Shown piece after piece: positions 53,596-56,592 of a stretch of 64,000 bases of DNA (within the stretch, counting starts at the first letter, position 1; the number at the start of each line of letters is the position of its first letter). The notes under the pieces were generated by a model, which was not told the DNA's origin, made no database searches, and saw only the letters and a program-made list of their open reading frames with translations. Source of the stretch: Megasphaera sp. MJR8396C (GTDB taxonomy: Bacteria > Bacillota > Negativicutes > Veillonellales > Megasphaeraceae); the NCBI RefSeq assembly GCF_001546855.1, contig NZ_KQ958151.1:1-64000 (forward strand), given 5' to 3'. Position numbers and translations under genes: made by a program.

Positions 53596-54981
53596 ATGAA
53601 ACGTACCGCACTAGCTGCGTTGGTCTGCTCGGCTTGCCTGGCTTGGAGCTCGGCAGCCGGCGCCGTGCCGACTGAGAACTGGGAAAGCTCCCTGAATGAT
53701 ACGCCGACGGCCCTTGCGGCAGCGATTGGGGAAGAACTTCTTCTCGATAAAGCCGACGAAGCCGATAAAACGACGCCGCCTGCAAAGCCGTCGAAGTCTG
53801 CCGAACGTAAAGATTCCGCGAAAAAAGACGGATCTCAAAAGTCGGCAAAATCCGATAAGGCCCAGCCGTCTTCTGACGTGAAAGAGAAAACGCCATCGGA
53901 TAAGAACGATGCTGCCGATGTTAAAAAAGATGACGCCAAAGACGGTAAAAAATCCGGCTATCACAACGCCGCTCCGGCCAGTGTCCACGCCCTGACGGCG
54001 GACGATCAGCGCATCTTCGATTCGCTGGATACGTTAAAGATTGCCCCCTTAGAAGCCAGTGATTTTTACATTGGCAGCATCCGCAGCGGTGACAGCCCGA
54101 TGAAAGTAAAGCGGATTTTTGGCAATCCCAGCAAATATTCGACCAGCATGCACTATACGTCGATGCAGTATACGGGGAAAGACCTGAAGCTGCGTTTTGC
54201 CATCCGCAATAAATTGGCCGACAGCCTGCGCTCTAGCGGCGATTCGCGTAAGAGCGTCCGTCCCGGCGTAGAGTCTGTCTTTTTGACGACCGGGACCAAT
54301 ATCCTCATCGGCCGCGATATGCGCTTGAAGTATCCCATCGAAGTGCTTTTGCGCCAATTCGGCATTCCCGATTCGATGCTGCGCGATACCGATGCCAACG
54401 TCTATTACGTGACCTATGAAAGCCCGAAAAAAGACGCTATGTATGTCTTTGCCGTCGGCAATCGGCGCGTGGAAAGGGTAGCCCTCATGCCGGTCCGGCC
54501 GCCTTATATCACCAGCGAACCGGCCAAAGACCCGAAGAAATTGACCGAACGGGACTTTACCCTCATGGGCTTTGGACTGAACCAGCCTTTTGAAGCCAAT
54601 AAGTACAATATGTGGAACAAGCTGGTCAAACGCAATAACAGTAGTTTTTGGCTCTACGGGGATTACGGTGTCGAAGTAGACCGACGCAATATGATTCAGA
54701 AAGTATTCCTCCTGACCAATAATGGCTATACCAGCCGCGGCGCGACCCTGGGGTATCACGTGTCGACCATTCTGGCACTGTATGGCCGTCCGGACCGCGT
54801 CGAATGGGGCCCGGATAAGGAAAAATCCGTCGATGCCTATTACTATGACAGCCCTTATCAAAAAGGCGTGTCTCTGGTCATCATCATGCGCCACAATGAG
54901 CCCTATGTCGACGATATTATCCTGACGTCGACGCCGATTAAGAATATCCAGGACCCGATGGAGCGTTACGGATTAAAGTGA
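53596..54981 (+). CDS. Exported protein of unknown function
   Basis: 461 residues with a clear Sec signal peptide (cleavage probably after AAGA, about residue 23). A Lys/Asp/Ser-rich low-complexity linker spans about residues 55-120. A folded part follows in which two or three segments share a pattern of an IGSIRSGDSPMKVKRIFGNP type: small strands with a Gly-x-Pro turn, then VLLRQFGIPDSM and ILALYGRPDRVEWG. The repeats recall BamE/SmpA-like modules that measure similar FGxP turns, but I do not claim that family. GGAGG precedes the ATG. Likely periplasmic, consistent with a diderm Negativicute. Confidence 0.75.
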   Translation: MKRTALAALVCSACLAWSSAAGAVPTENWESSLNDTPTALAAAIGEELLLDKADEADKTTPPAKPSKSAERKDSAKKDGSQKSAKSDKAQPSSDVKEKTPSDKNDAADVKKDDAKDGKKSGYHNAAPASVHALTADDQRIFDSLDTLKIAPLEASDFYIGSIRSGDSPMKVKRIFGNPSKYSTSMHYTSMQYTGKDLKLRFAIRNKLADSLRSSGDSRKSVRPGVESVFLTTGTNILIGRDMRLKYPIEVLLRQFGIPDSMLRDTDANVYYVTYESPKKDAMYVFAVGNRRVERVALMPVRPPYITSEPAKDPKKLTERDFTLMGFGLNQPFEANKYNMWNKLVKRNNSSFWLYGDYGVEVDRRNMIQKVFLLTNNGYTSRGATLGYHVSTILALYGRPDRVEWGPDKEKSVDAYYYDSPYQKGVSLVIIMRHNEPYVDDIILTSTPIKNIQDPMERYGLK

Positions 54982-55102
54982 GGATGCGTACCGTTTTTGC
55001 ATATGTGTGAAGAAAATAGTGAAAATGCTTTACTTATATGATGAAAGTTGGGTATAATAAAATAAATAAATTAAATATCTTAAGAAAACGAAGGTGATTT
55101 TC

Positions 55103-55570
55103 ATGGTTACAGATGCAGATGTTTTAAAACGATGGAAGTACATTGCCCAGGACGATGAAAAACTGTTGATTATCATTGGCAGTCCCGGTTCGGGTAAGAG
55201 CCAGCTCATCCGTGAACTGACGTATCAAGACGGTTGGAAGATTTGTGAAGCCCGTGAACTCTTTGATGACGAATTTTTGGAAATACCTCGTGCCGACCGT
55301 CCGGATAAAGCCATTACCCTTGTCTCCGCAGCGATTCATCGTCTCAATGCCCGTGTTGTTATGATTGATAACGTTGAATTTATGTTTGCGCCTATTTTGA
55401 ATCTCGATCCTGTGGCAATGCTGAAGAAACTGAGCCGCGAATGCCCGATTATCGTCAGCTGGCGCGGTAGCTTGGAAGGCAATACCTTGTATTTTGAACA
55501 CAATGGGGATCCTAAGTATGCCAAGTTTGTCATCGACAACCCCAATCATGTCATTTCTCTCGACGACTGA
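55103..55570 (+). CDS. BrxF-like P-loop protein (stand-alone)
   Basis: 155 residues: Walker A GSPGSGKS at 26-33; FLEIPRADRP near 58-67; Walker B-like VVMIDNVEFMF at 85-95; then NLDPVAMLKKLSRECPIIVSWRG (about 100-122) and a C-terminal GDPKYAKFVI stretch. These elements and the length match BrxF, the small P-loop protein of BREX type 3 phage-defence systems (its LPRKQRP, LLDNIE, LFDP and LSRNR-type blocks). No brxHII, pglZ, brxC or methylase gene is nearby; the neighbours are housekeeping. The GTG nine bases upstream overlaps the AAGGTGA site, so the ATG is chosen. Confidence 0.7.
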   Translation: MVTDADVLKRWKYIAQDDEKLLIIIGSPGSGKSQLIRELTYQDGWKICEARELFDDEFLEIPRADRPDKAITLVSAAIHRLNARVVMIDNVEFMFAPILNLDPVAMLKKLSRECPIIVSWRGSLEGNTLYFEHNGDPKYAKFVIDNPNHVISLDD

Positions 55571-55637: not shown

Positions 55638-55685
55638 AAAGGCTGTCCAAAAGGCTCGTTGCCTTCGCGGACAGCCTTTTTTTTT
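55638..55685 (+). terminator. Terminator after the BrxF-like gene
   Basis: AAAGGCTGTCC (55638-55648) pairs with GGACAGCCTTT (55669-55679), with an inner AGGC/GCCT hairpin, then nine T. Confidence 0.9.
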
Positions 55686-55761: not shown

Positions 55762-56592
55762 ATGAGTGATTCTATTATTGCCATTATCTTGGGGATTGTC
55801 GAAGGCTTCACCGAGTATCTGCCGGTATCTTCGACGGGACATATGATCCTTGTCGGGGATATGTTGGGATTTACCGGTCCCCGGGCCAGCGTATTTGAGA
55901 TTTTCATCCAGTTAGGTGCCATTCTGTCGGTGGTCATCATTTACAAAGAAAAATTTAACCGCATGCTCCATCAGTACCGCTGCTGGGACCTCCTGCAGCC
56001 GAAGAACTGGTTTCGCAACGATACGGGCCTGACCCTGGCTCATATCGCCGCCGGCATCGTCCCGGTCATGGGCATCGGCTATTTAGCGCATCATGCCATT
56101 AAGACCTATCTCTTCTCGGCCGGAACGGTCATCATCGGCCTCATCATCGGCGGTCTGTTCATGCTGCTGGCTGAAAAGCACGGTACGAAAACGGTCTGTG
56201 ACGACGTCGAAAAAATGACCATTGCCCAGGCCTTTTTAACGGGGATCTTTCAGATCTTGGCCTTATGGCCCGGCTTCTCCCGGTCCGGATCGACCATCGC
56301 CGGCGGCCTGTTCTTAGGCCTTAGCCGAAAGGCGGCAGCAGACTTTTCCTTCATCATTGCCGTACCGGTCATGATCGTAGCCTGCTTCTACGACCTCTTG
56401 AAGAGCCTGAGCGACCTTAGCAGCAACGATTTGATCATGATCGTCATCGGTTTTATTACGGCTTTTATTGTCGCCTACGTCTCGGTCTTGTGGTTCCTTA
56501 AATTCATGAACAAGTCGACACTGGCCTCTTTTGCCTACTATCGATTCGTCGTGGCTGTCATTTCCTTCGTTTATTTCTTTATTCTTTCTTAA
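55762..56592 (+). CDS. uppP: Undecaprenyl-diphosphatase
   Basis: 276-residue membrane enzyme with about eight segments. Both catalytic motifs are present: GIVEGFTEYLPVSSTGHMIL and WPGFSRSGSTIAGG. It dephosphorylates undecaprenyl pyrophosphate to recycle the lipid carrier for peptidoglycan, and gives bacitracin tolerance. AAAAGGAGATAAAACA precedes the ATG at 55762, and an extended -10 (TGG TATACT, near 55694-55702) lies upstream. Confidence 0.96.
   Translation: MSDSIIAIILGIVEGFTEYLPVSSTGHMILVGDMLGFTGPRASVFEIFIQLGAILSVVIIYKEKFNRMLHQYRCWDLLQPKNWFRNDTGLTLAHIAAGIVPVMGIGYLAHHAIKTYLFSAGTVIIGLIIGGLFMLLAEKHGTKTVCDDVEKMTIAQAFLTGIFQILALWPGFSRSGSTIAGGLFLGLSRKAAADFSFIIAVPVMIVACFYDLLKSLSDLSSNDLIMIVIGFITAFIVAYVSVLWFLKFMNKSTLASFAYYRFVVAVISFVYFFILS

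What the first reader, a model, noticed from the sequence alone, without database searches (positions are those of the whole stretch)
55103..55570. Stand-alone BrxF-like ATPase outside any BREX locus
The protein matches BREX type 3 BrxF in length and in several blocks, but it sits among housekeeping genes with its own terminator and no defence genes. It may be a domesticated BrxF, the ancestor of it, or part of a defence system whose other parts lie elsewhere.
Basis: partly seen in the sequence, partly recalled or inferred. Interest (0 to 1): 0.65.

Follow-up and report, generated by a model that had tools for sequence, protein, structure and literature searches.

The report
Core BrxF-like protein outside BREX
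A small ATP-binding protein that databases label as part of a phage-defence system (BREX type 3) is in fact an old, vertically inherited core gene of Megasphaera and many related gut and oral bacteria, present without the rest of that system, so the label is probably misleading and its real job is unknown.

Summary
The 155-aa ORF at 55103-55570 matches NCBIfam BREX_3_BrxF at 98.9 bits (cut-off 50; next family 23.5) and has its own promoter-like site and terminator. It lies between a secreted-protein gene and uppP. No BREX was detected in this genome: no BrxC of type 1 or type 3, no PglZ above cut-off, no DUF499. It is not an orphan. It occurs in 15/15 genomes of the genus, in most Veillonellaceae and Acidaminococcaceae, and in many other Negativicutes. 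In most of those outside Veillonellales it sits at one fixed housekeeping site (rlmB-yacP-sigH-[gene]-pfkA-uppP). Two further stand-alone groups occur elsewhere in Bacillota. BREX BrxF proteins fall apart from the Negativicutes clade in the tree and stand next to brxC. Stand-alone proteins always keep Walker A (147/147); most BREX ones here do not (17/43). Selection is strongly purifying. The AlphaFold model (pLDDT 93) matches BrxB best among solved structures. Best reading: a chromosomal ATP-binding AAA+-type adaptor that shares ancestry with BREX BrxF/BrxB and now acts outside BREX, probably by docking on another protein; the partner is unknown. Whether BREX recruited it or it left BREX is unresolved. 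RefSeq-style naming mislabels it as a BREX component.

The parts
55029..55058 (+). promoter-like site TTTACT-18-TATAAT
   Evidence: 10 of 12 matches, but 2.4 such sites are expected in shuffles of the region
55090..55097 (+). ribosome-binding site GAAGGTGA before ATG 55103
   Evidence: read directly from the sequence
55103..55570 (+). stand-alone BrxF-like P-loop (AAA+/STAND-type) protein gene, 155 aa
   Evidence: orthologues; AlphaFold pLDDT 93
55178..55201 (+). Walker A, GSPGSGKS (residues 26-33), invariant G26 G29 G31 K32 S33
   Evidence: 134/134 Negativicutes orthologues keep it
55355..55369 (+). Walker B strand VVMID (residues 85-89); D89 invariant; next residue N/G/R, no catalytic Glu
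55460..55468 (+). invariant W120-x-G122 before the C-terminal three-strand beta cap
   Evidence: strands 116-125, 128-133, 136-143 in the model
55638..55679 (+). intrinsic terminator of the gene (AAGGCTGTCC...GGACAGCCTT then T-run)
   Evidence: -26.8 kcal/mol, z -5.8
53596..54981 (+). upstream gene of a secreted protein without Pfam match, kept next to the BrxF-like gene across Veillonellales
55762..56592 (+). uppP (undecaprenyl pyrophosphate phosphatase, BacA), the neighbour most often kept downstream

Best explanation
The gene encodes an ancient, vertically inherited, single-domain ATP-binding protein of the BrxF/BrxB AAA+ (STAND/ORC-like) fold that works outside BREX as a core cellular factor. 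Shown: homology to BrxF, no BREX detected in the genome, conserved site, purifying selection, intact P-loop, BrxB-like predicted fold. Inferred: it binds ATP (Walker A and the Walker B Asp are invariant) but hydrolyses it slowly or not at all alone (no Walker B Glu, no C-terminal helical lid), and acts as a nucleotide-dependent adaptor. Its AAA+ face or beta cap (after the invariant W-x-G) would dock on a larger, probably AAA+ or nucleic-acid-acting, partner and regulate it, as BrxB docks on the BrxC ATPase domain and bridges it to PglZ. The partner is not identified. BREX-3 BrxF would be the branch specialised for BREX, which often lost its P-loop.
For: BrxF family above curated cut-off. 15/15 genus genomes; 37/39 of family f5, 4/4 f3, 14/14 and 7/7 in two Veillonellaceae genera. 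Fixed site between sigH and pfkA/uppP across Negativicutes; secreted protein-gene-uppP order kept in the 16 family loci as far as each contig or locus reaches. No BREX detected. Stand-alone Negativicutes form one clade apart from BREX, 93/95. Walker A 134/134, 8/8 and 5/5 in stand-alone groups against 17/43 in BREX. dN 0.02-0.19 with dS near or beyond saturation. Model pLDDT 93; top solved match BrxB 9zll, Z 10.8, 145 residues aligned, next 9.5. BrxB regulates and bridges BrxC and PglZ (PMC13326643).
Against: No partner or pathway is shown: neighbours differ between lineages (pfkA in Acidaminococcaceae/Sporomusaceae, a secreted protein in Veillonellales). The gene was not found in family f21, most of f2 and one Veillonellaceae genus, so it is not universally essential. 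The Z margin over generic AAA+ folds is small (10.8 against 9.5). The model was built from stand-alone sequences only. BREX relatives dominate the family outside Negativicutes.
Confidence: 0.6

Rival explanations
1. Domesticated BrxF: the gene left a BREX-3 system in the ancestor of Negativicutes (and separately in other lineages) and was given a new cellular role.
For: Some BREX BrxF proteins keep a P-loop, so they could be the source. Three stand-alone lineages sit on separate branches in the free tree. BREX moves readily between genomes, and most of the plasmid matches are annotated brxF.
Against: All stand-alone forms keep Walker A while most sampled BREX forms lost it. The data do not reject all stand-alone forms as one side of a branch (p-AU 0.46), so repeated escape is not needed.
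Confidence: 0.3
2. Orphan BREX remnant or split defence system: the protein still serves BREX encoded elsewhere in the genome or acquired from time to time.
For: Some relatives carry a type 1 BREX BrxC elsewhere (G003, G006, G015, G061, G102, G103).
Against: No BREX-1 or BREX-3 BrxC, PglZ above cut-off or DUF499 in the own genome. BREX-3 is in only 2 of 77 family-bearing genomes, each with its own adjacent BrxF. The gene is kept for long times without BREX under purifying selection.
Confidence: 0.05
3. Stand-alone defence or stress factor: a single-gene STAND-like sensor that acts without BREX.
For: STAND-like fold and P-loop; generic weak matches to NACHT antiphage and nSTAND3 models.
Against: No effector domain, only 155 aa; fixed synteny and near-universal presence in whole families are unlike the patchy distribution of defence genes; no match in 50,697 phage records.
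Confidence: 0.05

Closest known systems
BREX type 3 BrxF (NCBIfam NF033453, PADLOC BrxF)
   Same: Same family by profile (98.9 bits), same length and full-length alignment, same order of elements: P-loop, LFxPxLxLDPxxLL block, WxG, beta cap
   Different: Separate clade for the Negativicutes proteins; no adjacent brxC/pglXI/brxHII/pglZ; Walker A always intact; lacks the C-terminal HPEY-type motif of most BREX forms (30/43 by a loose pattern, 0/134 in the Negativicutes clade)
BREX type 1 BrxB (PDB 9zll, Acinetobacter)
   Same: Best solved structural match, Z 10.8 over 145 residues, with the beta-sheet cap described for BrxB/BrxF (PMC12839542)
   Different: BrxB lacks Walker motifs and forms complexes with PglZ and BrxC; none of these partners was found in this genome (PMC13326643)
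ORC/Cdc6-DnaA-RFC type AAA+ ATPases
   Same: Same core fold (RFC 9.5, ORC 9.0, DnaA 8.4)
   Different: No lid domain, no Walker B glutamate, no DNA-binding domain; sequence identity about 10-15%

Membership tests
BrxF sequence family (NF033453) | Profile score above curated cut-off over the full length | tested here: met
   98.9 bits against 50, profile 6-143 of 149
BrxF sequence family (NF033453) | No better unrelated P-loop family | tested here: met
   next NCBIfam 23.5 bits; Pfam below gathering thresholds
BREX type 3 component | Encoded beside brxC, pglXI, brxHII, pglZ, brxA | tested here: not met
   no such genes at the site; orthologues sit at sigH/pfkA/uppP
BREX type 3 component | BREX-3 BrxC and PglZ somewhere in the genome | tested here: not met
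   A2 profile no match in G000; PglZ only 20-21 bits inside a metalloenzyme-superfamily protein; assembly 99.9% complete in 69 contigs
BREX type 3 component | Branches among BREX-linked BrxF in a tree | tested here: not met
   stand-alone Negativicutes on one side of a branch, 93/95, unrooted
inactive STAND (iSTAND) as defined for BrxB/BrxF | Eroded Walker motifs | tested here: not met
   Walker A intact in 134/134, Walker B Asp invariant; the Walker B Glu is absent
inactive STAND (iSTAND) as defined for BrxB/BrxF | BrxB-like fold with beta-sheet cap after strand 4 and no C-terminal helical bundle | tested here: met
   predicted elements and 9zll BrxB as best match
phage-defence protein | Confers or is required for phage resistance | not testable with these tools
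   needs a deletion and plating assay

The most novel reading that the evidence does not exclude
The stand-alone proteins are the ancestral form: a housekeeping ATP-binding AAA+ adaptor that predates BREX, from which BREX-3 recruited BrxF and then let its ATP site decay. This would make BrxF a captured host factor and give a way to learn what BrxF/BrxB do from their cellular relative.
Probability: 0.35. Interest if true: 0.75.

Novelty: new variant of a known kind. Interest (0 to 1): 0.5.

Why it matters
Profile-based annotation would name such core genes 'BREX-3 BrxF', which inflates counts of BREX components; a placental metaproteome list already carries the Veillonella magna protein under that name (PMC10139004). 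If the stand-alone branch is ancestral, BREX acquired BrxF from a cellular AAA+ adaptor, and the function of that adaptor, testable in Veillonella, would bear on the unknown role of BrxF/BrxB in BREX.

Tried and rejected
Split BREX elsewhere in the genome: rejected by four family searches. NF033441 was found to be a poor detector of BREX-3 BrxC (21-25 bits in G120 and G243), so a BREX-3 profile (A2) was built and used instead. Mobile origin: no match in phages, and the 7 weak plasmid matches (at most 33% identity) are mostly annotated brxF. Functional link to a single neighbour: pfkA follows within about 0-50 bp in most of 55 loci and the secreted protein precedes in Veillonellales, but neither is universal. 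In Erysipelotrichales the upstream gene is a ROK/PTS-IIB protein, so no common partner. The helicase next to the stand-alone gene in L133 does not recur in its relatives. Sequence search of PDB chains gave only P-loop matches. Literature: no paper on a stand-alone BrxF was found in the held library; the passages read in the 2026 BREX survey treat BrxF only as a BREX part.

Full report
What was checked. The ORF at 55103-55570 encodes 155 aa, starting at ATG 55103 behind GAAGGTGA. It matches BREX_3_BrxF over its whole length at 98.9 bits, twice the curated cut-off, with no rival family. A strong terminator follows and a promoter-like site precedes, the latter no better than chance expectation. 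It is single copy in the genome.

Is there a BREX system? In the own genome (99.9% complete, 69 contigs) there is no type 1 BrxC, no BREX-3 BrxC by a profile built from nine BREX-3 loci, and no DUF499. The only PglZ-like match is 20-21 bits, below cut-off, inside a metalloenzyme-superfamily protein. Among 77 genomes that carry the family, only two have a BREX-3 BrxC, each with its own adjacent BrxF; one of them, G120, also has the stand-alone gene at the sigH site. Six have a type 1 BREX BrxC elsewhere. So the stand-alone gene is inherited independently of BREX.

Distribution and site. All 15 genomes of the genus carry it, and so does a second genus of the family. It is in 37/39 genomes of family f5, whose contigs correspond to Phascolarctobacterium, Acidaminococcus and relatives, in 14/14 and 7/7 of two Veillonellaceae genera, 4/4 of f3 and several Sporomusa-type families. 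It was not found in f21, in 11/12 of f2 and in Veillonellaceae g11. In G107 and G084 (L238), which lack it, sigH is followed by a pfkA-like gene directly, which reads as lineage loss or absence. In most Negativicutes outside Veillonellales the order is gltX-cysS-mrnC-thyX-rlmB-yacP-sigH-[gene]-pfkA-uppP (gltX, cysS, mrnC and thyX named from sequence, the others by Pfam), with about 150 bp to sigH and mostly 0-50 bp to pfkA, suggesting co-transcription with pfkA. In Megasphaera the sigH cluster lies on another contig (L234), while the order secreted protein-[gene]-uppP holds in the 16 family loci as far as the contigs and 3.4-kb loci reach.

Relation to BREX BrxF. In a 78-row tree the Negativicutes stand-alone proteins form one side of a branch (93/95), and the window protein groups with Veillonellales as the species do. 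Most BREX BrxF form another group; a divergent BREX subgroup and two smaller stand-alone groups (Erysipelotrichales; families f39/f122) lie on long branches of unsure place. Holding all stand-alone forms together is not rejected (p-AU 0.46). The strict P-loop is present in 134/134, 8/8 and 5/5 stand-alone proteins; GxxxxGK[ST] is present in 17/43 BREX proteins, and some of the rest keep a close variant that lacks only the first glycine. The ancestor therefore most likely had an intact ATP site. Direction of change is not settled because the tree is unrooted.

Selection and structure. Within the genus dN is 0.02-0.19 with synonymous sites near or beyond saturation. The AlphaFold model has mean pLDDT 93. 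The best solved match by VIA-align is BrxB in the Acinetobacter BrxC-BrxB-PglZ complex (9zll, Z 10.8, 145 residues), above clamp-loader and ORC AAA+ domains at 9.0-9.5; the margin is small and Foldseek alone ranks it seventh. Invariant residues are the Walker A set, R37, the Walker B Asp D89, W120 and G122. No glutamate follows D89 and there is no lid domain.

Mechanism. Inferred: an ATP-binding adaptor. BrxB, the structural counterpart, docks through its inactive AAA+ domain on the BrxC ATPase domain, stimulates it and bridges it to PglZ (PMC13326643). By analogy the stand-alone protein would dock on a cellular partner, with nucleotide state as the switch. The partner is unknown, and the neighbours (pfkA, uppP, the secreted protein) do not single one out.

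Known or new. BrxF is described as a BREX-3 part, a STAND/ORC-type homologue of BrxB (PMC12839542; PMC10164562). No report of a stand-alone core branch was found in the held library. Public annotation already calls the Veillonella magna protein BrxF (PMC10139004). I rate it a new variant of a known kind: same family and fold, different genomic and probably functional setting.

Noticed in passing
53596-54981 and orthologues (cluster c12: L032-L048, L149-L165): Secreted 390-690-aa protein with no Pfam match, fast evolving (24-65% identity) yet directly upstream of the BrxF-like gene across Veillonellales, in many loci 1-60 bp away.
   Followed up: partly
L220-L227 (Massilimicrobiota, Longibaculum, Candidatus Stoquefichus): A second stand-alone BrxF-like lineage (142 aa, intact P-loop) with a conserved upstream ROK/PTS-IIB-like protein in most loci; it also passes the BREX_3_BrxF cut-off and so would be annotated as BREX.
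   Followed up: partly
L129, L130, L131, L133 (families f39 and f122): A third stand-alone BrxF-like lineage (GPPGCGKS or GPPGSGKS) without BREX genes nearby; in two loci near a DUF438/hemerythrin/PAS protein.
   Followed up: partly
G010:C5:57393-57533: Fragment of a second BrxF-like copy with internal stops in a genome of the same genus (49% identity over residues 2-48), possibly a decayed duplicate.
   Followed up: no
L105:409-1953 (-): BrxF-like N-terminus fused in frame to what reads as the C-terminal part of an SNF2-type helicase, probably an internal deletion of a BREX-3 locus.
   Followed up: no
L183 (record titled Acholeplasmataceae): Locus has Acidaminococcaceae gene order and its protein groups with Acidaminococcaceae; the bin is probably mislabelled.
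   Followed up: no
G003:C17:1869-5438 and G006:C1:1651292-1654861: Type 1 BREX BrxC genes in two other genomes of the window's genus, with no extra BrxF above cut-off.
   Followed up: no
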